The notes under the pieces were generated by a model. It did no database searches, was not told the origin of the DNA, and saw only the letters and a program-made list of their open reading frames with translations. From IMG/VR virus record IMGVR_UViG_3300047489_000453, positions 1 to 64,000 of that record: 64,000 nucleotides of DNA. One strand, written 5' to 3'. The DNA is from a virus. A program made the position numbers and the translations under genes. Shown in pieces: positions 14,213-61,909 of the stretch (its first letter is position 1; the number at the start of each line of letters is the position of its first letter).

Positions 14213-14683
14213 CTATCTTTGCGACTTTTCAATTATTTTTTGGACGTAACCTAATACGCCGCTTGGACCTATAAAAGGTCCTTTTCCATCCCCTTGCCCT
14301 TTTCTTCTTCCTGCTGCCAGGGCTTCACTTTTGGCCAGTCCAGTGTATCTTAAATTCATCGCCCTTTCCATTGCCTGTAAATAAGCGGCCTGAAGCTTAA
14401 GAGCTTTTACGTCTCCGTCAGTTCCTGGAGACTCAACGTTAAATATTAGCCCGTAGTCCCTGTCTATTTTTTTTAATCTTGAGAATTCTTCTTTAGTATT
14501 AGCAGTGTTGTAAGGATTCTTTTTGTTTGTAAAAAGTAACGCCTGATTCCAGTCCCTAGACTCTCCTCCCTGAACCATATATTTGTGCATAGAGTCCGAC
14601 TGCTCTGACAGCTTTTTTATGTTGTCTTCAAAAGTTATGTCAGGGCCGCTTACTACAGACTTTCCGTAATATATTGAGCTCAT
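14213..14683 (-). CDS. Hypothetical baseplate-region protein
   Basis: 156 aa, overlapping the end of the sigma-like gene by 4 bases (ATGA), with GGTAGGGGTG upstream. It is helical and basic near the C-terminus (AAGRRKGQGDGKGPF), then ends in an amphipathic helix. No domain is recognised. It lies between the sigma-like factor and gp25-like protein and may be either a baseplate component or a partner of the sigma factor; translational coupling favours a partner slightly. Confidence 0.55.
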   Translation of the reverse strand: MSSIYYGKSVVSGPDITFEDNIKKLSEQSDSMHKYMVQGGESRDWNQALLFTNKKNPYNTANTKEEFSRLKKIDRDYGLIFNVESPGTDGDVKALKLQAAYLQAMERAMNLRYTGLAKSEALAAGRRKGQGDGKGPFIGPSGVLGYVQKIIEKSQR

Positions 14684-15744
14684 AGCACCCCTACCTTTTC
14701 TCTGCTATCAAGTTTCTTTTGAATTTCCGCTCTTATTTGACTTACTCTAGCCGGGGATATGCCCAGCTTCCTAGCTAAAGCCTCGTTGTCTAGTACTTCT
14801 TTTCCGTTCATACCAAACGTATGCTCCATGACCATTTGAGATCTTGGGTCAAGCCCGTCGTATACGAACCTTCTCCAAGCGTCTCCGCTGTCAGACGTCC
14901 CAGGAATGTTTACAGCTGGGTCATTAACATACTCGTCATCACCAGAAAACATAGCCTCAGTTGCGGCTCCTTCTGATATGCCTGGCTTAAATGACCTTAT
15001 GGTTTCTATTCTTTTTAGAGACATGCCAGTGTGGTCGGACAGCTCTTGGTCTGTAGGCTCTCTGCCAAGCTTATCCGTGAGCTCATTCATGGCCTGGTTT
15101 AAATGGTAACTGTCTATCTGCACTCTCTCTGGGACGTTTAAAATTTGGTTAGATTTAGCGTAAACCCTCCTAAGGCCTTGAAGGTGGGCCATAAGATGAG
15201 TCTTTAGCTTAGCTTGAGCAGGATCGTATGTATTTAAAGCCTCTAAAGCCATCCTATTGGCATGCAACCTTACACTTGGTGGGACATCTTGACCGACATA
15301 GCTTTTCAAAGCAGCTTCAATTATAGGCTGAATTTTTTGCAACATCATATCGTTGCTTTCTGGAGTTTGATTCTTCTTCCAGTTATTAAAAGACTCCTCA
15401 TATTCAGGCTCTATTTTGAGCTGGGATGATGGCTTCATATTAAATGGCTCATTTGCTTTTGAGCCATACGGGCTAGCTGGCTTGCTTGTACCGTCTTGAG
15501 GTTGGGCTGGAGCCATCAATGGAGGCTGTTGAGGCTGCGCCGGCGGCTGACCGAACATAGGGGCGGTGTTTTTAGGGGCTTCAGGCTCGCTAGAGGTGCC
15601 TGTAATAGCAGTATCGCTTAGGACAGAATTATTGTTATCGTCTGATGAGTCCAACAACGATTTAGGCTTGTTGGCCTGATTTTTTTGCCCCAAAGAAAAC
15701 ATAGTGGGGACGTCTCCAAAATTTTTCCTACCCATACTACTCAT
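14680..15744 (-). CDS. Sigma-70 family RNA polymerase sigma factor
   Basis: 354 aa. Residues 1-110 are low-complexity, rich in Pro and Gln. The rest follows the sigma-70 order. Region 2 (about 125-207) contains YDPAQAKLKTHLMAHLQGLRR followed by ILNVPERV, which parallels the YDP-x(4)-KF-x-TYA ... R-x-IRIP-x-H pattern of regions 2.3-2.4 to 3.0. Region 3 (about 212-250) has LTDKLGREPTDQELSDHTG. Region 4 (about 295-347) has LDPRSQMVMEHTFG and the helix-turn-helix ALARKLGISPARVSQIRAE. It probably gives promoter specificity to an RNA polymerase, either the phage enzyme encoded at 47.7-57.5 kb or the host core. Its place among baseplate genes is unusual. The palindromic repeat at 15705-15718 falls in codons 9-14. 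Confidence 0.85.
   Translation of the reverse strand: MSSMGRKNFGDVPTMFSLGQKNQANKPKSLLDSSDDNNNSVLSDTAITGTSSEPEAPKNTAPMFGQPPAQPQQPPLMAPAQPQDGTSKPASPYGSKANEPFNMKPSSQLKIEPEYEESFNNWKKNQTPESNDMMLQKIQPIIEAALKSYVGQDVPPSVRLHANRMALEALNTYDPAQAKLKTHLMAHLQGLRRVYAKSNQILNVPERVQIDSYHLNQAMNELTDKLGREPTDQELSDHTGMSLKRIETIRSFKPGISEGAATEAMFSGDDEYVNDPAVNIPGTSDSGDAWRRFVYDGLDPRSQMVMEHTFGMNGKEVLDNEALARKLGISPARVSQIRAEIQKKLDSREKVGVL
15705..15718. repeat. Palindromic site, one mismatch
   Basis: TGGGGACGTCTCCA, codons 9-14 of the sigma-70-like gene. Confidence 0.75.
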
Positions 15745-36363: not shown

Positions 36364-37293
36364 TTACGCAAAGTCAGCTCTAGCGATTGCGTTGGTGTTA
36401 CCAATTGCACCGCCGAGGGTTTCATAGGCGAAAAATTCGAGCATATACGCCTTACGATCGATATAAAGCGTGGTATCCTCTAAAATGAAACTTTTGCCTA
36501 CAAATTTAGGGTCAGCGAACATAAAGATGCTGTCCGTAGGAACCAAATCCTGCTTGATGGAGATAATCCAACGAGCATTCATGAAGTTCTGTTCGGTCCA
36601 ACCGTTCTTGAATACGTCCTGGCTGAAGTCACCGCCCATTTCTTCACGACCGAATTTCATCAGTTCGCGAATAGTAAGGTTGTTGATCAAGCAGGTGCCT
36701 ACTTCAAGGCGGCTGATGGTGCGAGGCAGAATCTTGAAAGCATCTTGAAGGGTATCACGAGTGATACCGCCGTAGATGGTTTCCCACTGTACCAAACCGG
36801 ACTGGGATACAGTAGTGTTAGCTGCGCTGCCCATAGCTGCGTTGCAAGCGGCGATGAACTTGCGATCTTCTTCCGCTAACATGTCCTTTATGGCGTTATC
36901 AGACAGGATCTGCCTGATGTCCATACGATAAGTGCGAAGTTCATCAACGTCCTTCGTGAATCGTGGGGTCACGATTCGGTCAAAGGTAACGCGATACTTC
37001 TGGCCACGAACATAGAGGTTCATAGGCAGAGTAGCGAAGGGAATGGAGATAGCAGCTGGGCTATCAGGTTCCCTTTCGATGATCTTAACAGGCTTATCGG
37101 TATCTACCTGTTGATCGAGATCGTCGTTGCTTACCTGGATTGGAGGAAGAATTCGTCGATAGAATCCTTCTTCACGCATCCTGTACCTGGTGTAGTCGAC
37201 CACTGCGTCGAGTGCTCGCTTTTCCATTCCAGGGGTTTCAAGGTAGCTGAGGAATGTTTCGTTCATCAGCTTAGTGTCGTTGTCGTAAGACAT
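36364..37293 (-). CDS. Major capsid protein
   Basis: 309 aa. Position after the protease, scaffold-like and small head genes, strong codon optimisation (Arg mostly CGN while tail genes use AGA/AGG) and a flanking stem-loop mark the most expressed head gene. The sequence has the HK97-fold layout: charged helical N-arm (MNETFLSYLETPGMEKRALD), an extended loop-like stretch around VDTDKPVKIIEREPDS, a long helix (DIRQILSDNAIKDMLAEEDR), then a beta/alpha A-domain with GRTIS-type TISRLEVGTCLINNLTIREL. It is shorter than many jumbo-phage capsid proteins. A cleaved N-terminal part is not obvious. The family match is by pattern, not by search. Confidence 0.8.
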   Translation of the reverse strand: MSYDNDTKLMNETFLSYLETPGMEKRALDAVVDYTRYRMREEGFYRRILPPIQVSNDDLDQQVDTDKPVKIIEREPDSPAAISIPFATLPMNLYVRGQKYRVTFDRIVTPRFTKDVDELRTYRMDIRQILSDNAIKDMLAEEDRKFIAACNAAMGSAANTTVSQSGLVQWETIYGGITRDTLQDAFKILPRTISRLEVGTCLINNLTIRELMKFGREEMGGDFSQDVFKNGWTEQNFMNARWIISIKQDLVPTDSIFMFADPKFVGKSFILEDTTLYIDRKAYMLEFFAYETLGGAIGNTNAIARADFA

Positions 37294-47260: not shown

Positions 47261-47680
47261 TTAAGAGTCATAATCCGTAATATTTACATTTAGCAGGCTT
47301 CTAGCCGCTACTCCGCTCTTTATAAAATTTAGGAAGTTTTGAAGATTCCTAATTTCAGCCATCTTAGCATAATTAGTTTGTGAATTAATAGTGGAGACAT
47401 CTCCACGATTAATTTGTTGTACAGGAGAAGGAGGCTGAATGACTGGCTGGGGATTATTAGATTGGGTCGTCACTATAGGCTGACTCTGTACTCTAGGCTG
47501 TATATTAGGGCTAGTATCTACTGACTTTACAGCCACTTCAGAAGGCGGCTTACCCTTAGTGGCCTCGTTTACTTGCAAAGGTTTTAGTGTTTCTTTTTCT
47601 GTTTTAGACTGGGACCCTTCAAGTTTTAAAGACTTGTCGGCCTGCTTCCAGGTAGCCCACTTTTCTAAAAAGGTTTGCAT
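47261..47680 (-). CDS. Small linker-rich protein, RNAP-operon neighbour
   Basis: 139 aa. Residues 40-95 are Pro/Gln/Ser-rich and disordered; the last 40 are helical (MAEIRNLQNFLNFIKSGVAA). Its ATG overlaps the stop of the beta-prime C-terminal gene as TAATG, implying coupled translation. The fully symmetric palindrome variant 47391-47406 reads RGDVSTIN here. Could be an accessory of the polymerase or an internal virion protein. Confidence 0.5.
   Translation of the reverse strand: MQTFLEKWATWKQADKSLKLEGSQSKTEKETLKPLQVNEATKGKPPSEVAVKSVDTSPNIQPRVQSQPIVTTQSNNPQPVIQPPSPVQQINRGDVSTINSQTNYAKMAEIRNLQNFLNFIKSGVAARSLLNVNITDYDS
47391..47406. repeat. Palindromic site, 16 bases with one central substitution
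   Basis: GTGGAGACATCTCCAC, in the 139-aa linker-rich gene, reading RGDVSTIN. Arms are complete over 7 bases each. Confidence 0.8.
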
Positions 47681-49590
47681 TATAGTACGCCCTTGCTCTG
47701 TTCAGGCACTTTGCCAAGCTCATTAACGTCAAATCCTTTTACCTTACCTTTACGACCAAAATCAACAGCTTTTGCCAATGATGGCACATATGATGTGCCA
47801 GCTTCGTCGCTTATGGCGCCTCTATGCACAGCTTGTAAGGTAGATTTTCTTAGATTGCTCCCCAGCATTCTAGTCATCCAGTCAGGGTCATGCTGAAGAT
47901 TTTCTAGACCTCTGACAAAATGGGGCTCAAACGGTGGAGGTTCTTTGTGGACTGTAATATCTTTTATGCCAAATTTTTCAAACTCTCTAACCATAGACGG
48001 CCTTATAGGCGTGCCTATCGTATAGTGAAGAACAGGTTTTTCCAAATAGCTTCCTACTCCTTGATTAGGCTTAACCGTTCTACTGTCTTGTCTAGGCTCC
48101 CATACGCTTTCAACTGAGTCATAAGGTATGACGTCGTCAGGGTTAAACTGATTATATTCGTCATTCATGATGACATGGTTGATAAGGCCTTTGGACATTA
48201 CCTCTATATTTCTGCGATGGCCGTACATGCCGGCCTCTTTCATTGCAGTCCTAAAAGAATTAACGAATTGGCGACGGCCCTCGCCTATTCCCCTAAACTT
48301 AGTAAATTGAGCAGGGTTGGGAATACCAGAGGATATGACATCTCCGGCTTCTACAGTATCGCCTACCTTTACTGAAGCGGAAGCCTCAGGGCTGACGTAA
48401 TGTTCTACGCCGTCTATAGTTACAAATACACCACCAGTAGGCGCAGGTTTAATATTTGATACTCTACCGTCCTTTTGTGCATGAGTAGCCCAGAATGGAG
48501 ACTGCTTAGGGATTTGCACTAATTGATTGAGGTGCCTAAAACCAGACACAGACGCGGACGCTCCTGCGATACCGCCAGTGTGTTTAGAGTTTAGCTGCCC
48601 TTGAGAAATGGGCTCTGATAAAGCCTGCATAGCAGCAATTCCAACAGCATCTCCTATAGGTGCAAGACCTGATCTTTCTCTAATTCCTAGGTCCCTTGCA
48701 TATAGCCCTCCACCGGCAGCTCCCGACGCTATTGGGCTCCTGATGACTATTCTGTCTATGTTCTTTGATTTTAAATCTTTAAGAACTCTAGGCGTGAGCA
48801 CAGTGTTTCTTCCGTAACCTCCGGCAGGCATTCCTAATAGTGCGCCTTCGTTTTCCTCGTCATCCGTGTCTACCGGCATCCCCCTGTTCTCTATTGATTT
48901 AGGGTCGTCAGCATCTTCGCCAGTAACTATCATCCTGTGGCCGATTTGATTTAATTGCTTGGAAAAGAAGCCTGCGTCCATAACTGAGAACTTGGTATCT
49001 GTGATACCTTTTCGTGTACCAAAGCTCCCTGCGAAGTATTCAGACGGAGTTAGTCCTTTTGAATAAGAGTTAAATACTGGTATTGGTATTTCTCTATCGT
49101 GATGATCGGTATATAAAATGTCGCCGCCTCTAAGGCTTTTGAGGTTTTTAGGCTTACCTCTGGACCCGGACTGAATTTGCCTAGCTAACTGATTTCCTTC
49201 AGCGCTAGCTTCATCAAATATACCTTTTTCTAGATCTTTTTGAGAATTAGCTAAGATAGCTACAATTTGTTTATTCTTATCGTCATCAGTGAGCTGTCTA
49301 TTTGAAATAATTGAGTCTATAGCTGCTTTAAGTTTTAGTTTTCTGTCGTGATAAAATTTTGATTCCCTAAGATCGCTAAGACCAAAAGAGAAGCCACCAG
49401 AGTTATATGACACGTCTCTACCGACGTCCATAAGCCCTTTGGCTATCTGTCTGTATTTGTCTGGGTGATTTTCTGCTACCGTCTGAAGAATACCTTGAAC
49501 TGCTTTGGTATCTAGAACTCTAGAGTAGTCCTTAAGCTCGTCAGGAAGCGCGTCATTAACCATGATTTGACCTATAGTGGTCTTTAACAT
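47680..49590 (-). CDS. RNA polymerase beta-prime subunit, C-terminal part
   Basis: 636 aa. It begins with the beta-prime segment KTTIGQIMVNDALP ... DVGRDVSYNSGGFSFGLSDL, which parallels the TTxGR ... GF-x-YATRSG-x-S-x-x-x-DDM stretch of cellular beta-prime. Bridge helix: SKGLTPSEYFAGSFGTRKG, residues about 177-215. Trigger-loop helices: GDAVGIAAMQALSEPISQ with HTGG, about 312-340. Between them the usual zinc-binding segment RSPLTC ... GVCxxCYGxDL is present as RSPIASGAAGGGLYARDL: all four cysteines are gone. It complements the N-terminal beta-prime part fused to beta at 53006-57457; together they make a full catalytic core without alpha or omega genes in sight. TATAGGAGAG precedes the ATG. 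Confidence 0.9.
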   Translation of the reverse strand: MLKTTIGQIMVNDALPDELKDYSRVLDTKAVQGILQTVAENHPDKYRQIAKGLMDVGRDVSYNSGGFSFGLSDLRESKFYHDRKLKLKAAIDSIISNRQLTDDDKNKQIVAILANSQKDLEKGIFDEASAEGNQLARQIQSGSRGKPKNLKSLRGGDILYTDHHDREIPIPVFNSYSKGLTPSEYFAGSFGTRKGITDTKFSVMDAGFFSKQLNQIGHRMIVTGEDADDPKSIENRGMPVDTDDEENEGALLGMPAGGYGRNTVLTPRVLKDLKSKNIDRIVIRSPIASGAAGGGLYARDLGIRERSGLAPIGDAVGIAAMQALSEPISQGQLNSKHTGGIAGASASVSGFRHLNQLVQIPKQSPFWATHAQKDGRVSNIKPAPTGGVFVTIDGVEHYVSPEASASVKVGDTVEAGDVISSGIPNPAQFTKFRGIGEGRRQFVNSFRTAMKEAGMYGHRRNIEVMSKGLINHVIMNDEYNQFNPDDVIPYDSVESVWEPRQDSRTVKPNQGVGSYLEKPVLHYTIGTPIRPSMVREFEKFGIKDITVHKEPPPFEPHFVRGLENLQHDPDWMTRMLGSNLRKSTLQAVHRGAISDEAGTSYVPSLAKAVDFGRKGKVKGFDVNELGKVPEQSKGVL

Positions 49591-49599
49591 GGTACTCTC

Positions 49600-49812
49600 C
49601 TATAAATTAATCTTCCTGATAACTGGTTTATCCAGCCCGTGATCTTCTAGAACTTTTAAAAAATCATCATCGCCTGCAGTGGCGCAGACGATGATGTTTT
49701 TATCATTCTCAATAAAAACAGCTATAGGATTATTCATATTGTCGTAAACCACCAGCCTGGTAGCGGGCGACAGCCTATGATTTAAAAGATTATTATGATA
49801 ATCCAATAACAT
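49600..49812 (-). CDS. Small protein in RNA polymerase island
   Basis: 70 aa, start overlaps the preceding stop (TAATG). Alpha/beta character (LVVYDNMNNPIAVFIENDKN). Next to the beta-prime C-terminal gene, 9 bases upstream. Could be a polymerase accessory; no family recognised. Confidence 0.5.
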   Translation of the reverse strand: MLLDYHNNLLNHRLSPATRLVVYDNMNNPIAVFIENDKNIIVCATAGDDDFLKVLEDHGLDKPVIRKINL

Positions 49813-50456
49813 TATTTTTTCTTTCTAAGCAAGTACATCATTCCAGCGGCTTTCTCAGCTACAGAGATTTTAGCCGACTTAATTGGAGAGGTGTCTTGCG
49901 AAGAAGCGCTCGTAGCATCTTCACCATCTTTAGCTGGCGACGATACGTCATCTAGAATGTCATGAGGAAGGTTAAGCCCTAACGATGAATACAGGTGTGT
50001 CAAAAGCTTCTGTATTCTATGCATGTACAGCTCAACTTGCCCATTATCGTTTTTCTTTGAGGCTTTACCGGTGCCTTTGGCCCCGGCTAAAGCTTTTTGA
50101 AGCTCTTCCTGTACCACAGTTCTAATTTGCTCAGTAGGATCAGCTGGAGGGGATGCTCCGGCCGCAGCTGGATCCATAGGAGGCGCTCCGCCCATCATAG
50201 CTGGGTCCATAGGAGGCGCTCCGCCCATCATGGAGGGGTCCATAGGAGGTGCGCCGCCTGGAGGCATGCCGCCCATCATGGAGGGGTCCATAGGGGCTCC
50301 ACCTGGAGGCATGCCCCCCATCATAGATGGATCCATAGGAGGCGCTCCGCCCGGAGGCATACCGCCCATAGCTGCTGGGTCGCCGCCTTGGGTAGGAACA
50401 AAAGCACTTTTAATGCTATTTTTTGCTGATTGAAGCAGGAATCTATTAACTGCCAT
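49812..50456 (-). CDS. Low-complexity Met/Gly/Pro repeat protein
   Basis: 214 aa. Residues 30-99 are five imperfect repeats of MGGMPPGGAPPMDPSM. A helical charged part follows (EQIRTVVQEELQKALAGAK) and a basic end (KISVEKAAGMMYLLRKKK follows in that part). CGGAGATAAAATACA precedes the ATG. Such Pro/Gly/Met repeats are disordered and flexible. It is located between the two RNA polymerase genes; role unknown, either virion linker or polymerase accessory. Confidence 0.55.
   Translation of the reverse strand: MAVNRFLLQSAKNSIKSAFVPTQGGDPAAMGGMPPGGAPPMDPSMMGGMPPGGAPMDPSMMGGMPPGGAPPMDPSMMGGAPPMDPAMMGGAPPMDPAAAGASPPADPTEQIRTVVQEELQKALAGAKGTGKASKKNDNGQVELYMHRIQKLLTHLYSSLGLNLPHDILDDVSSPAKDGEDATSASSQDTSPIKSAKISVAEKAAGMMYLLRKKK
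50160..50369 (-). repeat. Tandem repeats encoding MGGMPPGGAPPMDPSM
   Basis: About five units of 33-48 bases in tandem inside the low-complexity gene; units lose the MPPGG part toward the C-terminus, which suggests expansion and contraction by slippage. Confidence 0.85.
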
Positions 50457-50500
50457 TGTATTTTATCTCCGTTTTAAGCCCCAGTATATGCATCGCGTGT

Positions 50501-51397
50501 TTATATTTTTCCAGAATCGTCAGTATGCATTTTGTCGAATAGTATTGGGCTATCTCCAATATTATCAGAAGTATGACTAAAGTCAGGTTGCACAAGTTGT
50601 TTATATGGATCGTGCAATCCAGTAGAACCTGGAAACTTACCAGTATAAGGATTAGGCCTTACAGGTATAAGAGGAGCAGAGTTTTTAGCTGCTTCTCTTT
50701 CTGCTAACATTTTGCCTAAAATAGAGCTTAAACTTCCAGCTCCTGCACCTATTACACCGCCGCCCAGCGCGCCTGTTGCAAATCTGTTTAACATCCCTTT
50801 TCTTTTGCTGCCTAAAGCTAAGTTTCCTACGCCGCCTACACCGGCTCCAATTAGAGAACCCATAATAGCTTTTTGAACTCTTGGGTCTAATTGTCCATAA
50901 GCCGACATAATATCAGATACCGCAGCACTTTTATTAAAGGCTCTGAGAACATGATTAGCGTTATTAAAGCCTGATTCTTTTATGCTCATTTCTTCAACTC
51001 CTAAAGTATCTGCGCTTCCGCATTTCCATTTTCTTAAAGACTTGTTAATCCTGCTGTCCGGGTCATTAGCCGTCTCAGATGAAGTAAGTTTTGACTTCAT
51101 GCCTTTCATTCTGGCGCAGAAGCTATCTTTGCGCGCCCCGCCTTCCGGCTGAGGCCTCTTTATATCATGCCCTTGCGCCTTTAAGCTAGCCCTGCCTTTT
51201 TCGTTTAATCCGCCTTCTGGATTCTTACCTTCGGCTTTTTGCCAGGCGGCTGTGCCTTTTTTCTCTGATATTGATGTTACTTTCTTCCAGTTTTTTGCAT
51301 CTGGATAGTCTTTATCGCCTGGCTTGGCTGGAGCCTCGCCTCTCTCTTTTTTAGCGTGAATATTAGCCCACAACCCCGGCTTAGACTTATCTGCCAT
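50501..51397 (-). CDS. Glycine-zipper protein with CARM-KWKC N-terminal domain
   Basis: 298 aa. Residues 1-125 are a basic phage domain with KPGLWANIHAKKERGEAPAK, GLNEKGRASLKAQGHD and SFCARMKGMKSKLTSSETAN ending RKWKC; this pattern recurs as a small free-standing protein in many phages, function unknown. Residues about 170-225 are glycine-zipper membrane segments (IMGSLIGAGVGGVGNLALG, ALGGGVIGAGAGSLSSILG). The combination of a basic domain and membrane-inserting segment suggests an internal virion protein ejected with DNA. Confidence 0.6.
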   Translation of the reverse strand: MADKSKPGLWANIHAKKERGEAPAKPGDKDYPDAKNWKKVTSISEKKGTAAWQKAEGKNPEGGLNEKGRASLKAQGHDIKRPQPEGGARKDSFCARMKGMKSKLTSSETANDPDSRINKSLRKWKCGSADTLGVEEMSIKESGFNNANHVLRAFNKSAAVSDIMSAYGQLDPRVQKAIMGSLIGAGVGGVGNLALGSKRKGMLNRFATGALGGGVIGAGAGSLSSILGKMLAEREAAKNSAPLIPVRPNPYTGKFPGSTGLHDPYKQLVQPDFSHTSDNIGDSPILFDKMHTDDSGKI

Positions 51398-51521
51398 TTT
51401 TAACTCCTTTTAAAACCAGTTAAAAGCCTTCATCTACTCTGTCGCACTTCCGCTTCGAGTGATGATTAGTCCCAGGAAAGTGCTAAAACGGGCCCTAGGC
51501 TTTCAACTGGATCTATAGATA
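51398..51521. other. Gap without a recognised gene
   Basis: 124 bases between the ATPase stop and the start of the 298-aa gene. I see no convincing hairpin terminator or promoter. It is the longest featureless gap inside the RNA polymerase island. Confidence 0.5.
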
Positions 51522-53009
51522 CTAACGCTTAGAGCCTATCTCTTTAAGCAAATTCAAGAACTTTTCATTAAGTTCTTGCTTCTTTTGTGCTGCTGCCATC
51601 AAGTATTCGTCAGTGGCAGGATCGCCTTCAGGTTTAAACCCTATTAGTCCTAGCAGCGATTTTAGCCTACTTGGAGCCGTTCTCGCCAGATATCTTTCTA
51701 TTTTTACTTTTCTCTCTTCAGGTGGAAGGTGCTCATGGCTGTCAAACCTTAAAGCTCTTCCTTCGCTTTGCGACCCTCTGCTGGTATTCCAGTGCGGGTC
51801 CAGTAGCTGCACTAGCTTTGTGCCTTTAAACGATAGCCCCTCTGTTCCGGCTGGGCCTAGCAGAGCCACCTTTAACTTATCAGCATTAAAATCATCTACT
51901 AGTTTTTTCCTTTCCTTGTCGCTTAACGCCCCTGTAAAGGAGGCGGCAGGTATACCAGCTTTATTTAATGCAGCCAGGTAAGGAGACAAGCCGGCGTCAA
52001 CAAAATTAGAAAATACTAACGCCTTGCCTCTTGGGTCTGTCTTAAGAAGGGTATTAAGCCTATTAAACGCCTCGTTTAGTTTTGGAGACTCTTTGAACGC
52101 CTTCATAGGGTCGGCATTATCTTTCATAAATGGAAGAGTGGATAAGCCTACTTGTCTTGGTCCTGTTAAAAAGCTTACTAACTTTTTTGACTCCTCATCT
52201 GTGAGAGGGTAGTTAAGTTGTAGCTTCCATTTAAGAAGAGTCGGCAGCTTTCCAAACAATTGATTATATAAATCTGTCTGGTCTCTGCTCATCTCTACTA
52301 TTACGTCTTCTCTGTTAATGTCAGCTCTTGGTTTTAAAGGAGCAAAGTAATCTACCTTACCTTTTAATGATTTTTTTAGCTCTTCCACGTTTTTTAATTC
52401 TGGGTCGTGGGCTTTTACATTTAGAAGCAGCTTATACCATGGGGCCTTTTCTGGTTTGCTTACGTACCTTTCAGAGAAGGCCTCAGGCGTCATTTCGCTA
52501 TCGGTAAGTACGTTATAAGGTACGGCAAAGTCGGCTGGGCTATTAACTATGGGGGTTCCAGTAAGAAGAACAGCTTGTCTAGCCTTCCTTGCTGCCTCTA
52601 AGAGATTCTTAGTCTGGGCTGACTCCATATTTCTAAATCTATGAGCCTCGTCTACTAATAAAGATTCGGGATGCTCTATAGGCTTGCCCATAGCCAGTCC
52701 CGTATGGCTCATTATTGATGACGGGGTAGCAGTTGCAGGATCTATAAATTTTTCCTGCTCTTTTTTAAGATTAGTTCTAAGAGCTGCCGGCACTATGGCC
52801 GTGTAAGGAATTTTAGTAGCATCAGCGGCCGCCAGACCGCTTAAAGTCTTGCCCGACCCAAGACTATGATAGAGCAGCATTCTAGCTCTATCTTTTTTAT
52901 CTATCTGTTCTTGAACCTTGTCTACAACGGCCTGCTGATGCGGCTGTAGATTTACGCCTTGAGCTAAGTCGGCCTGCTTACAAATTGTGGAGACGTCGAC
53001 ACTACTCAC
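51522..53009 (-). CDS. Superfamily 2 helicase/ATPase, NPH-I/D6-like
   Basis: 495 aa, starting with a GTG that overlaps the polymerase stop (GTGA). Helicase motifs in order: Walker A LLYHSLGSGKT, Walker B VDEAHRFRN, motif III LLTGTPIVNSP, then GKALVFSNFV, GTEGLSFKGTKLVQLLDP and motif VI QSEGRALRFDSHEHLPPEER. The last motif, with SHEHLP, is closest in appearance to transcription-associated ATPases of poxviruses and related viruses (NPH-I/D6-like) and SNF2-like helicases, rather than to recombination or replication helicases. Its coupling to the RNA polymerase gene suggests a role in initiation, elongation or termination by the phage enzyme. Translocation could also be along DNA in the virion. 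Confidence 0.85.
   Translation of the reverse strand: MSSVDVSTICKQADLAQGVNLQPHQQAVVDKVQEQIDKKDRARMLLYHSLGSGKTLSGLAAADATKIPYTAIVPAALRTNLKKEQEKFIDPATATPSSIMSHTGLAMGKPIEHPESLLVDEAHRFRNMESAQTKNLLEAARKARQAVLLTGTPIVNSPADFAVPYNVLTDSEMTPEAFSERYVSKPEKAPWYKLLLNVKAHDPELKNVEELKKSLKGKVDYFAPLKPRADINREDVIVEMSRDQTDLYNQLFGKLPTLLKWKLQLNYPLTDEESKKLVSFLTGPRQVGLSTLPFMKDNADPMKAFKESPKLNEAFNRLNTLLKTDPRGKALVFSNFVDAGLSPYLAALNKAGIPAASFTGALSDKERKKLVDDFNADKLKVALLGPAGTEGLSFKGTKLVQLLDPHWNTSRGSQSEGRALRFDSHEHLPPEERKVKIERYLARTAPSRLKSLLGLIGFKPEGDPATDEYLMAAAQKKQELNEKFLNLLKEIGSKR
52987..53002. repeat. Palindromic site, two mismatches
   Basis: GTGGAGACGTCGACAC at codons 3-8 of the SF2 ATPase gene, reading SVDVSTIC. Confidence 0.65.
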
Positions 53010-56000
53010 TTTCCTGTCTCCATTATCACGACTCTATCGTTAATATCTATGTCGCCAGATCTGTAAGCTCTTATAGCGTCAGCTTTGGTCTTAAAGTATT
53101 TCTCTGGTCTTTTTGAAGGAGCAGCGGATGCAGCGTATAGCCCGCCCTGATACTCGTTAGCTGGAAGCTGATGAACTTTAAATGACTTAGCTGCCATAAG
53201 GTTACGACTTGGCAACATCTTTTCCATCGCGTCTTTTACAGCCTCGTCCGTGCTTGGAACGTGATAGTTCATGGCATCGCCATCAAAGTCGGCATTAAAA
53301 CCTTTTACTATTATTGGAGACACCTGTAGCGTGCTACCTTTTACCAGCTTAGGCTTAAACGCCATTACACCATATCTGTGAAGAATAGGCGCCCTTGTCA
53401 CTATTACGGGCCTTGCGTCCATCTCGGCAACCATGGCGTCTCTGGCCATGTTGTCTTTCTTATCAATCATGTCGGCAGCTTTAAACCTATCAACGCCTCT
53501 ACGAATAAGACGCCTCATTATAAACGGTTTATATACTGACCAGGCTCTATCCTCTGGAAGGCCTACTTCGTCCATGTCCAGATCAGGGTTAGGAGTAATT
53601 GCCGCCCTTCCTACCATATCAACTTGAGAGCCTAAAAGTTTTCTTTGAACAACGCCAAACTTAGGATTATCTCCGAATACTTGCTTTAATATTCCTTTTA
53701 CGTTTTTCTTTTCAAGCTTTGGATTAACAGAATCTCCAAGGCCAGTTATAGCCTTAAATGAGTCATAAAGAGCTAGTCTGTGTTGAGACAAGTCAGAAAA
53801 TGACTTTGAAGCTTCTCTGAACTCATTATTAACGTCGATAAGTTCCTTGTATAGGTAGTTAGCATCTCCGACCATCGGTAGACCGTTGTTAGACATTATA
53901 CTTACAGGTCTAAACACTGGAGGCAAAACGGGTACTTTTGTAAGCATCCATTCTGATGGGTGTATCTTAAGGTTCTTAGCGCTCTTAAGATAACTAAGCT
54001 TTCTTACAGCGTCGTCCCTGTACGACTTTTTACCGGACGCAATTATAGCTCTGGCTTTGGCTATTTCTTGATCCACGTTCATGGATTTGAGCGCATTAGC
54101 TATGGCTGAGGGCCCAGAGGCACCTCCAAGCTGCTCTTTTCCAGCTAGTACGTCTCTAAATTTATTCTCAGTTAGACCTAGAACTCTTCTTATAGGGTCT
54201 TCCATAACAGGGTTAGGCATTGCCTCGTGAAGCTTTATATGGCTCCACATGTTGCCGCCATGCCCGCCTGTAAGAGATACGTCAAATAGACCGCCACCAG
54301 CAGGCTCAAGACCTTTGCCCCAGTCTACTGTATCTGATTTTTTGATTTCCCTATTTCCTGACAGGGAATCTATATCCTTGTCAGTAAGGGCCATAAGTTG
54401 TGTCTTAGTTCCACTTCTTACAGGGTTTATTCCAGACGCCTGGAGCTGAGCCATGAACTTTCTGTAAGTCAGTGGGACTCTAGGTATTGGAAGAGGTCCG
54501 CCTGTCATAAAGGACGCCCAGTAATCTTCGTTCTTCTGGCCCCTTATAGCGCCGGCATCCCTAAGTACTTCGTGAGCGCCGTGTGACAATAAAGCGTTAA
54601 CGTCCATTAATGATACGCGCTTGCTTCCTTCTTCACCGCCCTTGGCCGGAGTCTCTTCAGAGGTATATCCGCCGCTGCCTATACCTCTACCCTGGCCTTT
54701 AGACTCCGAGGTATGGTGTAGCTTTAAAAAGAACCTGTTTCCTGTGAATATGCCTTTTATTTTTCTTCCAGTCTCCGGGTCTTCAATATCTTCCTTGTCG
54801 CTCATGTTATTTTTTTTAAGTTCATTAAGAGCAAACTCGGTAAGATCCTGGATGTTTTCAAAATCTTTTACCGCGTACCTTTTTCCAGTCTTTGCAGCTA
54901 TCTTTCCTAGAGCAGCCTCAATCATCTGACTTGGGTTTGTTCTAGATATAACGCCAAGGGGATTAAGAAGAATGTCAAAAGGATTGCCCTCTGAATCTCT
55001 AGGCATTTTTGAATCTGGAATAACGGCGGATATAACTCCCTTATCGCCATATCTACCTGACAGCTTGTCGCCTTCTTTTGAACTGCTAAGGCTTTTTACA
55101 GTTACTGATACTCCCTTATTTGTCTTGGTAACATCTGTAACTACGCCATCGTTTTCGTGGTCCCAGGTAATAGATGCATTACTAAACCCAGTCTTTGACC
55201 TGCCTATCTGTTGATTGTGTGACCTTGAAAGAATTTTGGCCTGTAAAAATAAAGGGTCTCCCTTTCTTACTACAGTGCCTGGCTTTATGGCGCCGTCATC
55301 GTCCAGAGAGTCAACTACCTGTCTAGAATAGTCTGAAGGAAATAATGTTAGAAATCCTCTTTTGCCTTCTTTAGTTTCCTTGCCAAATTCAGCTTGGTGC
55401 TGATACATGTGCTCTGACGTTAATTTTTTAGCGGCGCTTTCAGATATAACTACAGCGTCTTCAAAGTTATAGCCTTTATAAGGAATGTAGGCGGTTCTAA
55501 GATTAATGCCCAGAGCAGCTGTACCTTTTTCATCGGTATAGTTTGACCTTGCTAACAGCCCGCCTTTTTTTACCATATCGCCAACTTTTACAGTTGGAGT
55601 GTTGTGTAAAAAGGTTTTTCTATTAAAAGGTAAATTGTTGTATATCTCTTGCTTGTAAAGCTTTCCGTCTGTTCCTCTAATTCTAACCTCGTCGTTGTCG
55701 GCATAAATTACTTGGCCATCAACATCAGAGTAGGCTGCGCCCATATGCTTGCCGTATTCCTCTTCATATGATTTATCCTCTTCGCCAAGCTTACCGGACT
55801 GCACAAGTGGGGCCTCTGGATTTTTCAGAGGCAGAGCCTGGGTAAGCATTCTTGAACCCATCACTACTCTTTGGCCAAATGTAGCGCTCTTAAGCGGAAC
55901 CATGTTGGCAAGGTGATTAAAGGCGCTGTCCATTCTAGGCAGTTCGAAGTCAACATCTTGTCTATCAACATATTTAATCTTACCGCCGGCCATAGCGGCT

Positions 56001-57457
56001 ACTTTAGTCTTTGATTTATCTATGAGCTGGTTTGGAAACGCTATTACTGACTGGGCCATCTCTTGCGGAGTTTTCCAAACTTCATCACCTGTTCTTACAT
56101 CTCTAAACTTAGAATAAACTTTTCCGTCTACGCCTTTGCGGGCGTTTGTAGCTATTCTGCTATCAATACCCACCTTAAGTGACTCTGGCGTAAGCAGAGG
56201 ATCTATGTAGCCAAAGTGAGATGGCTGAACGTTTCTAGCTTCTTCTGGAACAGCTTGCAAGGAAGGAATGCCGCCTTCGCCGAGACGACTTACTCTGGTG
56301 ATTTGATTTAATAAATCAGCTGGATTTACTTCTTCAAGAGGCTGGCCCAAGCCGCTTTTCATAATAGCGGAATTAACCTGTGAAGATAAAAATCCAGGAG
56401 CAAATGGCGATAAGTTTTGTTTAAAGCTGGCCTTCCACAGCAGAGGGCGCATAACTTTATAAGCAGCCCTAATTCTTTCAGTAAATAAATCTTCAGGGCC
56501 ATACAGATTCTGATAGGCCATGGCGTCTCTGTCGTCTGGATCTGCCTCTTTTCTATGCACAGCTAATATTCTTTTTGTGGCTGCCAACACTGAATCAACT
56601 GACAAGTTAGAGAAGCCTTTACCTAAAGTTGCAGCCGTAACTTCTGGATCAAGCTCCATTTTTGTCATGGCAGCTGCTACGGCTTTAGCTTTACTTTCTT
56701 CGGTCATGGCCTCGCCAGGCTGTAGTCTTCCTATCTTTTTGAAGATCTTGTCTAGGTATTGAGGATCATTTTTAACTGCGTTTGAAGCGTATATCTCATT
56801 TCCCCACGCTTCCCTAATCTGCTTATCGCTAGCGCCCATAGCTTTAAGAACTGGCATAAGAGGCACATTAGACTGGCCAAATGAAATATTAAACACGCCC
56901 TTTTCTGGGCTTAAAGAGTATCTATGAGATAGCCCCTTGCCAGGCATTACGTTTACGTGGCTTTCAACGTCGCCGCTATTTGTTATTCTTGTAAATACAC
57001 CCGGCCTTAGCCTCATCTGGTTAGCCAAGGTATACTCAGTGCCGTTTACTATATAAGTTCCTCTATCTGTTAGGTAGGGAATCTTAGCTATAGTTGTCCT
57101 CTTGCTTTCAAGCACCTTGCCCGTACTATTATCGATTAGATTTATTGTACCTTTGAGGCCGCGACTGAGAGTTTCGCCTTTTAATATGGCTTCTTTTTGA
57201 GTCTTTATAGGCTTTACCTCTTCAGGGTCGCCCCAGCCTACATCTGTAATTGATAGAGTGTGTCTCTGGTTACTGAGAGGCTGTAACGACGAGGCTGCTG
57301 TCTGAACTCCGTTAAATATTGCAGCTCTAGTAGCCTTTATGTCATCAAACCCTCTCATGGAAGGGGCTTGCATAGAAGGAACTAAGCCGACCATTTTATT
57401 GGCCGGCTTAGGAATGAGGCCGCTGCTATCTGGCTGATCGGGAAGTACGCCGGCCAT
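53006..57457 (-). CDS. RNA polymerase beta subunit fused to N-terminal beta-prime
   Basis: 1483 aa. The beta part covers about residues 1-1050: GTYIVNGTEYTLANQMRLRPGV (fork/lobe), GYNFEDAVVISES at 662, GDKLSGRYGDKGVIS at 796, NPLGVISRTNPSQMIEAALG at 832, then LKLHHTSESKGQGRG at 911. The beta-prime part follows directly: MWSHIKLHEAMPNPV (about 1070), the clamp-like HPSEWMLTKVPVLPPVFRPV (1166), LLGSQVDMVGRAAITPNPDL (1274) and RAPILHRYGVMAFKP, ending with NADFDGDAMNYHVP at 1388-1401, whose three Asp hold the catalytic magnesium. The protein stops 82 residues later. The rest of beta-prime is a separate gene. No zinc-ribbon cysteines were seen at the start of beta-prime. GGGAGATAAGC precedes the ATG. 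Confidence 0.93.
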   Translation of the reverse strand: MAGVLPDQPDSSGLIPKPANKMVGLVPSMQAPSMRGFDDIKATRAAIFNGVQTAASSLQPLSNQRHTLSITDVGWGDPEEVKPIKTQKEAILKGETLSRGLKGTINLIDNSTGKVLESKRTTIAKIPYLTDRGTYIVNGTEYTLANQMRLRPGVFTRITNSGDVESHVNVMPGKGLSHRYSLSPEKGVFNISFGQSNVPLMPVLKAMGASDKQIREAWGNEIYASNAVKNDPQYLDKIFKKIGRLQPGEAMTEESKAKAVAAAMTKMELDPEVTAATLGKGFSNLSVDSVLAATKRILAVHRKEADPDDRDAMAYQNLYGPEDLFTERIRAAYKVMRPLLWKASFKQNLSPFAPGFLSSQVNSAIMKSGLGQPLEEVNPADLLNQITRVSRLGEGGIPSLQAVPEEARNVQPSHFGYIDPLLTPESLKVGIDSRIATNARKGVDGKVYSKFRDVRTGDEVWKTPQEMAQSVIAFPNQLIDKSKTKVAAMAGGKIKYVDRQDVDFELPRMDSAFNHLANMVPLKSATFGQRVVMGSRMLTQALPLKNPEAPLVQSGKLGEEDKSYEEEYGKHMGAAYSDVDGQVIYADNDEVRIRGTDGKLYKQEIYNNLPFNRKTFLHNTPTVKVGDMVKKGGLLARSNYTDEKGTAALGINLRTAYIPYKGYNFEDAVVISESAAKKLTSEHMYQHQAEFGKETKEGKRGFLTLFPSDYSRQVVDSLDDDGAIKPGTVVRKGDPLFLQAKILSRSHNQQIGRSKTGFSNASITWDHENDGVVTDVTKTNKGVSVTVKSLSSSKEGDKLSGRYGDKGVISAVIPDSKMPRDSEGNPFDILLNPLGVISRTNPSQMIEAALGKIAAKTGKRYAVKDFENIQDLTEFALNELKKNNMSDKEDIEDPETGRKIKGIFTGNRFFLKLHHTSESKGQGRGIGSGGYTSEETPAKGGEEGSKRVSLMDVNALLSHGAHEVLRDAGAIRGQKNEDYWASFMTGGPLPIPRVPLTYRKFMAQLQASGINPVRSGTKTQLMALTDKDIDSLSGNREIKKSDTVDWGKGLEPAGGGLFDVSLTGGHGGNMWSHIKLHEAMPNPVMEDPIRRVLGLTENKFRDVLAGKEQLGGASGPSAIANALKSMNVDQEIAKARAIIASGKKSYRDDAVRKLSYLKSAKNLKIHPSEWMLTKVPVLPPVFRPVSIMSNNGLPMVGDANYLYKELIDVNNEFREASKSFSDLSQHRLALYDSFKAITGLGDSVNPKLEKKNVKGILKQVFGDNPKFGVVQRKLLGSQVDMVGRAAITPNPDLDMDEVGLPEDRAWSVYKPFIMRRLIRRGVDRFKAADMIDKKDNMARDAMVAEMDARPVIVTRAPILHRYGVMAFKPKLVKGSTLQVSPIIVKGFNADFDGDAMNYHVPSTDEAVKDAMEKMLPSRNLMAAKSFKVHQLPANEYQGGLYAASAAPSKRPEKYFKTKADAIRAYRSGDIDINDRVVIMETGK

Positions 57458-60281: not shown

Positions 60282-60309
60282 ATTATAATGTTTGCTACTG
60301 GCCGAACAA
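60282..60309 (-). promoter_or_regulatory. Candidate promoter before the 120-aa gene
   Basis: On the minus strand TATAAT (60287-60282) lies 16 bases after TTGTTC, in an AT-rich 87-base gap between genes. The -10 is perfect, the -35 poor. It lies inside the self-complementary CATTATAATG. Confidence 0.35.
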
Positions 60310-61821
60310 GCCCGGAACAACTGATTTAACAGCCCCGGCTATAACTCCAGCTGTTTGTAACGTTTTTTGAGCTTCTGGAGTGAGCCCGGCTAGAGCCCCC
60401 AAGACTTTTCCGCCAATCGTAGCCTGTACGTATCCTGCGCCCATTCCAAGACCTATTCTGGCTATGTCCATAGGACTTACGTATCTAGACGGACCGCCTA
60501 TATTGCTGGCAGCGTTTACAACTCCAAGTGTAGCCGCCTGCATTGGAGGTGCTATAAATGGGTCGTTTAAAACTAGCCTATTAAACGCGTCTACAGGAAT
60601 GGGCTCAAGGCTTATTGAAGGCGCGCCAAACCCGCCGCCGAAGCCTCCACCAAACATGTCGGCCGCTTTTTGCATCTCTTCTGATATCTCAGGCTGAATA
60701 GCTTTTAGGCAGGCACTTGCTTTGTTTATAAATGAATTGCCTTGGGCATTAACTGGATTGCCGTATATAACGTTAGGTCGTATAAACGCTCTCCAGCTTC
60801 CTTTGTCCCTTTCGGGATTATATTTACTATCCCAGGTAGAGACGCCTAAAGCGCCTAGCCCGGCTCCAGGTAGAGTTCCAAGAGCGCCAGCCAGCATAGC
60901 CAGCCTCTTTCTTGATTTGTTCTTTTCAAACACGCCTGGAGCTAAGGATTCGGCTATAGTGCCTGCTCCATATCCTACTCCTGCGGATAAAAGTCCGCCT
61001 GCTAGCATAGCAGCTAGTGGGGTAGGTCCTCCTATGGCGTTTGAGAACCTAGACGGCTTAAGCATAAGCATTTTGGCAGCCGGGCCAAATACGTCTGACA
61101 TTAACAAGTCTCTGGCGCTCTTGACCATGATCCATGGTGGGCCTTCAGTAAGACTGTCTTCAGGCTGACAAATATCGTGAGCTATGGCTTCTTTCTCAAG
61201 ACAAGTGGAGACGTGTCCACTTTTCTCTACGACTACCCTGCTATCGAACGGATTAATCCAGGCGTATGTCCCTGGCAGCAAAGCATTTGCGACTTTATAG
61301 TAGGTGTCTCTTACAGCATTGGCATACACCAAAACCTGGTCTGGTACATCATCCCAAGTTAAATTATTTGCAGATTTCATTGTTGGTACTTGCCACTTTA
61401 CGGAAGGCGGAATAATATTCCTAGGTACATGAATTTTAAAAGACGTAGGTACGTGAGTTATGCCAACATATTTGTTATTCAATACTGAATCAATTACAAA
61501 CTCATCAGGGTACTGTTCCATCATACCCCTTAGTATCTTGTTCTTTTCCTCGTAGTTTTTCTCATCAGAAAACTTTTTTGCCTTAAGCAAAATATTAAGT
61601 GCTGATTTGGGGTCTCTTTTTTTAGATTCCTCAGAGGCAGGCTCAGGTAACGGCTGTTGCTCAGTCTGTTGCTCAGTGCCTGGTTGGCTGACTGGTTTTG
61701 GTGGATCTAGTGGTTCTGGCGGAGGTTCTTGTTGTGTTACGGGAAGAGGAGGTTCCTCAGGCTTAGGTGGCGCCGTGGGTACTGGCGGGGTAGACGGTGG
61801 TAACGGTAGTTCTGCCTGCAT
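60295..61821 (-). CDS. Pro-rich/glycine-zipper protein, internal virion-like
   Basis: 508 aa from the ATG at 61821, which has GGAGG 6 bases upstream; a 21-codon longer reading has none. Residues 1-60 are Pro/Glu/Gln repeats. Residues about 70-250 are a mixed domain with KFSDEKNYEEKNKILRGMMEQ. Glycine-zipper membrane segments occur at about 265-325 (LAAMLAGGLLSAGVGYGAG, LAMLAGALGTLPGAGLGALG), and a second Gly/Ala-rich region ends the protein. First gene of the minus-strand block and divergent from the reductase. Palindrome at 61205-61220 reads SGHVSTCL. Likely packaged and ejected. Confidence 0.6.
   Translation of the reverse strand: MQAELPLPPSTPPVPTAPPKPEEPPLPVTQQEPPPEPLDPPKPVSQPGTEQQTEQQPLPEPASEESKKRDPKSALNILLKAKKFSDEKNYEEKNKILRGMMEQYPDEFVIDSVLNNKYVGITHVPTSFKIHVPRNIIPPSVKWQVPTMKSANNLTWDDVPDQVLVYANAVRDTYYKVANALLPGTYAWINPFDSRVVVEKSGHVSTCLEKEAIAHDICQPEDSLTEGPPWIMVKSARDLLMSDVFGPAAKMLMLKPSRFSNAIGGPTPLAAMLAGGLLSAGVGYGAGTIAESLAPGVFEKNKSRKRLAMLAGALGTLPGAGLGALGVSTWDSKYNPERDKGSWRAFIRPNVIYGNPVNAQGNSFINKASACLKAIQPEISEEMQKAADMFGGGFGGGFGAPSISLEPIPVDAFNRLVLNDPFIAPPMQAATLGVVNAASNIGGPSRYVSPMDIARIGLGMGAGYVQATIGGKVLGALAGLTPEAQKTLQTAGVIAGAVKSVVPGLFGQ
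61205..61220. repeat. Palindromic site, one mismatch, complete 16-base arms
   Basis: GTGGAGACGTGTCCAC in the 508-aa gene, reading SGHVSTCL. Confidence 0.75.
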
Positions 61822-61909
61822 AGTATCCTCCAACACAAATAGTACCAATTCTTGAGGGTCCAATCTATAGTTTAGGTTTAACAATTTTACCTTTAGGAGG
61901 GTAGTTTCA
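61822..61909. promoter_or_regulatory. Divergent intergenic region
   Basis: 88 bases separate the divergent late block (minus) and the reductase gene (plus). It holds ribosome sites on both sides. TATAGT on the plus strand is a possible -10 but lacks a matching -35. It is the only place in the window where strand changes, so promoters for both directions are expected here. Confidence 0.4.

What the first reader, a model, noticed from the sequence alone, without database searches (positions are those of the whole stretch)
47680..57457. Fused beta-beta-prime RNA polymerase with beta-prime split before the bridge helix
One gene encodes all of beta followed directly by beta-prime up to and just past NADFDGD. 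A second gene carries the TTxGR segment, bridge helix and trigger loop. Known phage multisubunit enzymes (phiKZ, PBS1/AR9 types) split beta and beta-prime into separate genes; cellular beta-beta-prime fusions (Helicobacter, Wolbachia) keep beta-prime whole. Fusion and split together are, as far as I know, unusual. No alpha or omega was seen.
Basis: partly seen in the sequence, partly recalled or inferred. Interest (0 to 1): 0.9.

Follow-up and report, generated by a model that had tools for sequence, protein, structure and literature searches.

The report
Phage polymerase with shifted subunit border
A little-known group of large bacterial viruses builds a bacterial-type RNA polymerase from two proteins whose border lies in an unusual place, and in one cultured relative both proteins were found in purified virus particles together with a sigma factor.

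Summary
ORF 53006-57457(-), 1483 aa, is a beta subunit joined without a linker to beta-prime up to 95 residues past the start of NADFDGD. ORF 47680-49590(-), 636 aa, is the rest of beta-prime (TTxGQ, bridge helix, trigger loop, C-terminus). About 13 residues are missing between them (near E. coli beta-prime 552-564), a loop that is also missing or short in whole phage beta-primes. It is neither an artefact nor unique: 85 of 85 distinct loci showing both parts keep them in separate ORFs at the same border. Salmonella phage Arash and three Vibrio phages share it; these four are also the only ones of 50,697 named phage records with a relative of this phage's head protein. Alpha: 0 of 29 genomes; omega: none over cut-off. 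Published mass spectrometry of Arash virions lists both RNAP proteins, this sigma and the helicase. Most likely reading: an alpha-less, two-polypeptide virion RNA polymerase with its own sigma, distinct from phiKZ/AR9 enzymes and from mReC-type phages. Activity is untested and deep phylogeny unresolved. New variant of a known kind.

The parts
53006..57457 (-). Fused RNAP gene, 1483 aa: beta joined to the N-terminal part of beta-prime
54404..57457 (-). Beta part (fused residues 1 to about 1018; border approximate)
53009..54403 (-). Beta-prime N part (fused residues about 1019-1483): clamp coiled coil, active site; zinc site 1 absent
53276..53296 (-). Active-site motif NADFDGD (fused 1388-1394)
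47680..49590 (-). Beta-prime C gene, 636 aa, equivalent to E. coli beta-prime from residue 569 on
48943..49056 (-). Bridge helix (beta-prime C residues about 179-216)
   Evidence: name recalled
48562..48645 (-). Trigger loop (beta-prime C residues about 316-343; His337 = E. coli His936)
   Evidence: name recalled
51522..53009 (-). Swi2/Snf2-type helicase, 495 aa, GTG start overlapping the fused gene by 4 nt; relative of Arash Gp217 (32.5%, 2.7e-68)
14680..15744 (-). Sigma70-family protein, 354 aa; relative of Arash virion sigma Gp010
50501..51397 (-). DUF6321 protein between the RNAP genes; role unknown
49812..50456 (-). Pro/Met-rich low-complexity ORF; similar ORFs lie between the RNAP genes in several relatives
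49600..49812 (-). 70-aa ORF just before beta-prime C; homolog at that place in 55 of 83 lineage loci
36364..37293 (-). Major head protein candidate, the lineage's capsid marker (not part of the enzyme)

Best explanation
The two genes encode one bacterial-type RNA polymerase core made of two polypeptides: beta continued covalently by the N-terminal part of beta-prime (clamp coiled coil, active-site aspartates), and the C-terminal part of beta-prime (bridge helix, trigger loop), held together by folding against each other. The covalent beta/beta-prime joint probably takes over the scaffold role of alpha (inferred). A phage sigma70-family protein (14680-15744) probably gives promoter specificity, and the adjacent Swi2/Snf2 helicase may assist. 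The enzyme is most likely made with the structural proteins, packaged, and delivered with the DNA to transcribe early genes. Shown here: both genes, the border, the fold, its conservation, the sigma homology, co-occurrence with one capsid type. Shown by others in Arash: relatives of all four proteins are detected in purified particles. Inferred: activity, assembly without alpha, packaging in the window's own phage, the early-gene role.
For: Full set of catalytic elements across the two proteins; same border in 85 of 85 loci; alpha 0 of 29, controls 13 of 14; omega none over cut-off in 29, controls 14 of 14; sigma relatives in 20 of 21 genomes, 19 of 19 aligned members match Sigma70_r3, profile finds SigA structures at 2e-17; sigma-binding coiled coil kept in the 8 rows shown; Arash virion LC-MS: Gp206 3516 spectra/128 unique peptides, Gp216 1210/40, Gp217 1148/38, Gp010 467/24 (PMC10585845), peptide density at or above that of the portal.
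Against: No activity or complex has been measured. Packaging rests on a relative with only 32% (fused) and 24% (beta-prime C) identity. The Arash authors also offer carry-over of abundant enzymes; their table of 116 proteins holds metabolic enzymes, some with many spectra on 2 unique peptides. Sigma region 2 is weak: 1 of 19 members. The helicase lies in the same locus in only 7 of 86 distinct loci, so its tie to the RNAP is not general. One weak omega-like hit below cut-off (G021, E 0.0155). Trigger-loop Arg933 and Phe935 are replaced.
Confidence: 0.68

Rival explanations
1. The same two-polypeptide enzyme, but a non-virion RNAP for middle or late genes that merely co-purifies with particles.
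For: Arash authors' own alternative; phiKZ-type phages have a non-virion RNAP (PMC7598289, passages); only one beta in the record.
Against: Fused protein is the most detected protein in Arash particles, with peptide density above the portal's; the genes sit among co-directed head and baseplate genes.
Confidence: 0.22
2. An ordinary member of the mReC phages (Weinheimer and Aylward 2020).
For: Cell-like phage RNAP; a fused protein could satisfy that paper's two COG criteria; its full contig list was not available to me.
Against: Capsid family PF07068 in 0 of 21 lineage genomes, present in controls; contigs from the metagenome named for two mReC examples have whole separate genes; the lineage is one side of a branch in both trees.
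Confidence: 0.06
3. The two halves are rejoined into one beta-prime by intein trans-splicing or recoding.
For: Split inteins do occur in this gene in L022/L167 and L120, near fused residue 945.
Against: No intein sequence at the beta-prime ends of the window's proteins (read by eye); gap of 854-7142 nt in 85 of 85 loci; in Arash reverse-strand genes lie between; Arash peptides are listed for two separate proteins.
Confidence: 0.02
4. Assembly error or pseudogene.
For: The window comes from an environmental virus record of 136,787 bases.
Against: Same structure in 85 of 85 distinct loci and in deposited Arash and Vibrio phage genomes; open frames, 74-81% identity to the nearest relatives L005-L008.
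Confidence: 0.01

Closest known systems
RNAP of Salmonella phage Arash (Gp206 + Gp216, PMC10585845) and its relatives in Vibrio phages D69, D181, D148
   Same: Same fusion and same beta-prime border, sigma and head-protein relatives; D181 has an extra break in beta beside an annotated homing endonuclease. D148 was seen only as tblastn hits.
   Different: 32% and 24% identity; second zinc site kept in Arash and D69; helicase follows beta-prime C in Arash, not the fused gene; a second, more usual sigma (gp196 in Arash). The paper section read calls the proteins beta and beta-prime.
mReC phage RNAPs (PMC7481178)
   Same: Cell-like multisubunit RNAP in tailed phages
   Different: The type found in that paper's source metagenome has whole, separate beta-prime then beta (79 of 80 loci), keeps zinc site 1, and a different capsid family
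phiKZ/AR9-type virion and non-virion RNAPs (PMC7598289, passages)
   Same: Phage multisubunit RNAP without alpha or omega; beta-prime cut after the catalytic barrel; Snf2-type helicase near RNAP genes (PMC7824862, passages)
   Different: There beta and beta-prime are each cut into two or more chains, and no recognisable sigma is reported
Cyanobacterial and plastid split beta-prime (RpoC1/RpoC2)
   Same: Beta-prime cut between catalytic barrel and bridge helix
   Different: Beta not fused; phage cut lies about 11-17 residues earlier
Fused RpoBC of Helicobacter/Wolbachia (recalled)
   Same: Beta joined to beta-prime
   Different: Beta-prime there is not cut
Phages IME392 and L202
   Same: Beta-prime cut in the same region (E. 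coli about 514-527)
   Different: The annotated beta-prime genes are not joined to a beta; another branch of the beta-prime tree

Membership tests
Cell-type multisubunit RNAP core | Two catalytic barrels with NADFDGD, bridge helix, trigger loop | tested here: met
   in the 8 lineage rows shown the motif varies (GADFDGD, AADYDGD, TMDFDGD) but keeps the three aspartates
Cell-type multisubunit RNAP core | Alpha and omega subunits | tested here: not met
   0 of 29 alpha; 0 of 29 omega over cut-off, one weak hit; many records may be fragments
mReC | Major capsid protein of family PF07068 (reported for the 8 of 97 mReC contigs with an MCP) | tested here: not met
   0 of 21. Controls: over cut-off in 4 and below it in 1 of 5 other RNAP phages; in L205 but not L203, L204, L206, L207, whose records are 25-97 kb
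mReC | RNAP inside the mReC clade | tested here: inconclusive
   Separate from mReC-type rows in both trees; unrooted, deep order conflicts, original contig list not seen
phiKZ/AR9-type RNAP | Beta and beta-prime each split into two or more chains | tested here: not met
   Beta is whole and fused
Cyanobacterial/plastid split beta-prime | Same cut position | tested here: not met
   RpoC2 starts at about residue 12-18 of the phage protein
Fused RpoBC of Helicobacter/Wolbachia | Whole beta-prime in the fusion | tested here: not met
   definition recalled
Virion RNAP | RNAP present in the particle | not testable with these tools
   Published for the relative Arash only
Sigma70 family | Region 3 and region 4 homology | tested here: met
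   Region 3 over cut-off in the window protein and matched in 19 of 19; region 4 in 8 of 19 at E<=0.01; SigA profile match
Sigma70 family | Region 2 (-10 recognition) | tested here: inconclusive
   Pfam region 2 in 1 of 19; the PDB profile alignment begins upstream of region 3

The most novel reading that the evidence does not exclude
A separate class of phage multisubunit RNA polymerase, fixed in a widespread and barely described lineage of large tailed phages (Arash-like): an alpha- and omega-less two-chain core with its own subunit border, packaged as a near-complete holoenzyme with a dedicated sigma70-family factor (and in some members a Swi2/Snf2 helicase), so that the phage injects a bacterial-style holoenzyme. 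The many inteins in these genes, some of them split, would fit mobile elements as a driver of gene fission in phage RNAPs.
Probability: 0.55. Interest if true: 0.85.

Novelty: new variant of a known kind. Interest (0 to 1): 0.74.

Why it matters
How an RNAP core assembles without alpha is called unknown for jumbo phage enzymes (PMC7598289, passages); a natural beta/beta-prime fusion suggests a direct, testable answer. The border shows where beta-prime tolerates a break, and a second phage group has a nearby cut while grouping with unsplit relatives. A recognisable sigma sets this enzyme apart from phiKZ/AR9 types, for which that review reports no recognisable initiation factor. A cultured member (Arash) with published virion proteomics makes the idea testable now.

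Tried and rejected
The sigma was first missed: PF04542 gave 9 of 29 genomes at E<=1, 5 over cut-off, none in the window's record; searching with the Arash virion sigma found it.

Deep placement is unresolved. In the beta-prime tree the lineage and the sampled bacteria lie on one side of a 96/96 branch, mReC-type rows with Carin-5 and GN1 on the other; in the beta tree the lineage sits with Carin-5 and GN1, and mReC-type rows with bacteria. Neither tree is rooted, bacterial sampling is 4-5 rows, and I claim no origin. Left out of the trees: L074 and L082 (no beta-prime C in view), L085 and L089 (interrupted), L094 (2 stops).

Window 60295-61884 versus the Arash portal: no similarity. Upstream k-mers: ribosome-binding-like words and a weak CATAATT, not pursued. 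NCBIfam intein models hit L026 and L029 but none of the L017 or L022 ORFs at 0.001; the split inteins are read by eye.

Limits of the counts. One search examined 178 sequences: 85 with both parts, 76 duplicates, 12 with one part, 5 with neither end. Vibrio phages D69 and D181 fall outside the 85 because their fused match ends early; their structure is.

Literature: no description of this fusion plus split was seen in searches (two returned nothing, the exact phrase 'Salmonella phage Arash', also nothing; listings only, except papers named here). Subscription papers and bioRxiv are not held; supplements could not be read. PMC10159854 (passages) mentions a phage gene 'RNAP beta and beta prime' and a second, non-homologous RNAP fragment; that this is the same architecture is my guess.

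Full report
WHAT IS THERE. The window is bases 1-64000 of a 136,787-base virus record. ORF 53006-57457(-), 1483 aa, carries Rpb2 domains followed by Rpb1 domains; ORF 47680-49590(-), 636 aa, carries Rpb1 domain 5. Between them lie a Swi2/Snf2-type helicase whose GTG start overlaps the fused gene by 4 nt, a DUF6321 protein, a Pro/Met-rich ORF and a 70-aa ORF. No second beta was found in the record, and neither protein matched elsewhere in it.

WHERE THE BORDERS LIE. Two AlphaFold models built from lineage alignments of 43 and 45 sequences are fairly confident (pLDDT 83.7 and 83.8). Fused residues 560-1483 align in their first part with E. coli beta 702-1341, so beta ends near fused residue 1016-1021; fused 1020 already aligns with RpoC 21, so there is no linker. 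The second protein aligns over residues 1-630 with E. coli beta-prime 569-1372 (Z 27.3). In the alignment with Salmonella RpoC, fused 1478 matches 550 and Met1 of the second protein 569; about 13 residues are missing, near 552-564. The same stretch is missing in Rhizobium phage RHph_Y65 and shorter in two mReC-type beta-primes that are whole, so its absence is no argument against function. Solvent exposure of the cut ends was not computed. Cyanobacterial RpoC2 begins at about residue 12-18 of the phage model: a neighbouring but different cut.

CATALYTIC FEATURES. In the 8 lineage rows shown the three active-site aspartates, the bridge helix and the trigger-loop histidine (E. coli 936) are kept; the first letters of NADFDGD vary, and L092 reads TMDFDGD. 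Trigger-loop Arg933 is replaced and Phe935 is Lys. Zinc site 1 is deleted in all 8. The Cys pattern of the second zinc site is visible in L080, L092, Arash and D69 but not in the window, L006, L013 and L009. The sigma-binding coiled coil is kept (its role in bacteria is recalled).

HOW WIDESPREAD. Of 178 sequences examined, 85 distinct loci show both parts, all 85 in separate ORFs with 854-7142 nt between them. The second ORF aligns from residue 1-6 of the window's protein in all 85; in the 75 where the motif was matched, the first ORF stops 92-97 aa after it. Salmonella phage Arash is among them. Vibrio phages D69 and D181 show the same structure, and D148 by its hits. Five contigs in metagenome-assembled bacterial genomes also belong here, weak host evidence.

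A LINEAGE OF ITS OWN. The window's head-protein candidate has relatives in 21 of 21 lineage genomes and 0 of 3 other RNAP phages. Among 50,697 named phage records it hits four: Arash, where it is annotated as major capsid protein, D69, D181 and D148. The lineage is one side of a branch at 100/100 in the beta-prime tree and 100/99 in the beta tree (15 rows each). Deeper order conflicts between the trees and stays open.

NOT mReC, ON PRESENT EVIDENCE. mReC phages (PMC7481178; abstract, parts 1-3 of 6 of the text and search passages read) were defined from metagenomes. Two contigs from the metagenome named there for two mReC examples have whole, separate genes (L221, L222). That type keeps beta-prime whole, followed by beta, in 79 of 80 loci. 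The capsid family reported for mReC is absent from 21 of 21 lineage genomes. It rings over cut-off in 4 of 5 other RNAP phages and in 1 of 5 mReC-type records, the other four being shorter fragments of 25-97 kb. The published contig list was not available, so overlap cannot be excluded.

SIGMA. Pfam region 2 found no sigma in the window's record. The Arash virion sigma Gp010 did: 20 of 21 lineage genomes match, the window at 14992-15396 inside ORF 14680-15744 (E 9.6e-17; G022 did not match). That ORF passes the Sigma70_r3 cut-off, 19 of 19 aligned members match region 3, 8 match region 4 and 1 matches region 2, and the family profile finds SigA structures at 2e-17. Arash, D69 and D181 also carry a second, more usual sigma; the Arash one (gp196) is not in the virion table. 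Alpha was found in 0 of 29 genomes, omega in none over cut-off.

IN THE PARTICLE. The Arash paper (PMC10585845; abstract, passages and the whole genome/proteome section read) reports LC-MS of sucrose-gradient particles. Gp206, the fused protein, is the most detected of 116 proteins; Gp216, helicase Gp217 and sigma Gp010 are also listed. Unique peptides per 100 aa are 8.4, 6.6, 8.1 and 10.3, against 5.5 for the portal. The authors suggest early transcription or carry-over; the table includes metabolic enzymes, so carry-over is real for some. The section names Gp206 beta and Gp216 beta-prime and does not mention a fusion or a shifted cut. Packaging in the window's phage is inferred from homology and from gene position among co-directed head and baseplate genes.

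MECHANISM. Most likely: a two-chain core in which joining beta to beta-prime stands in for alpha, guided by the phage sigma, packaged and injected for early transcription. Assembly, activity and injection are inferred. The helicase is less certain: Arash Gp217 is in the particle, but the helicase lies near the RNAP genes in only 7 of 86 distinct loci.

WHY THE CUT. Large inserts are common in these genes: 42 distinct junctions in 25 of 178 sequences, 34 in frame; NCBIfam intein models hit L026 and L029 but not the L017 or L022 ORFs. In L022/L167 and L120 the fused gene is broken near residue 945, with what reads by eye as an N-intein at the end of one ORF and a 41-residue C-intein before the next exon. 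None sits at the fixed beta-prime cut, so a mobile-element origin of that cut is only a suggestion, made earlier for jumbo phages (PMC7598289, passages). IME392 and L202 carry another beta-prime cut near E. coli 514-527 and group with unsplit Rhizobium and Vibrio phages.

VERDICT. Real and conserved; I saw no description of this architecture in the searches listed. A new variant of phage multisubunit RNAP with an unusually direct route to experiment.

Noticed in passing
L022 9851-13024 and 14938-16698; L167; L120 2624-5758 and 5997-7907: Fused RNAP gene broken near residue 945 with apparent split-intein halves at the two ends (read by eye), so the chain is probably rejoined by trans-splicing.
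   Followed up: partly
L026, L028, L029, L085, L024 and others: Up to several large in-frame inserts per RNAP gene, often at conserved motifs: 42 distinct junctions in 25 of 178 sequences; intein profile hits in L026 and L029. The window has none.
   Followed up: partly
L003 7950-13521 (Vibrio phage D181): Fused gene interrupted between two ORFs by an annotated homing endonuclease; an intron is possible but untested.
   Followed up: no
L185 (Escherichia phage IME392) and L202: Beta-prime cut near E. coli 514-527 in phages whose nearest sampled relatives have it whole: an apparently independent split.
   Followed up: partly
window 49600-49812: 70-aa ORF directly before beta-prime C, with a homolog at that place in 55 of 83 lineage loci and 0 hits in mReC-type loci.
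   Followed up: partly
L033 3820-7029 (record bases about 124820-128029): One 1069-aa ORF with a uracil-DNA glycosylase domain followed by exonuclease and family A DNA polymerase domains.
   Followed up: no
record bases 121702-121818(-), outside the window: Second, partial match to the head protein, residues 236-274 at 87% identity.
   Followed up: no
window 61910-64000(+): Ribonucleotide reductase large subunit with ATP cone, on the opposite strand to the structural block.
   Followed up: no
L001 and L002 records: Arash and D69 carry a second sigma factor besides the virion type.
   Followed up: no
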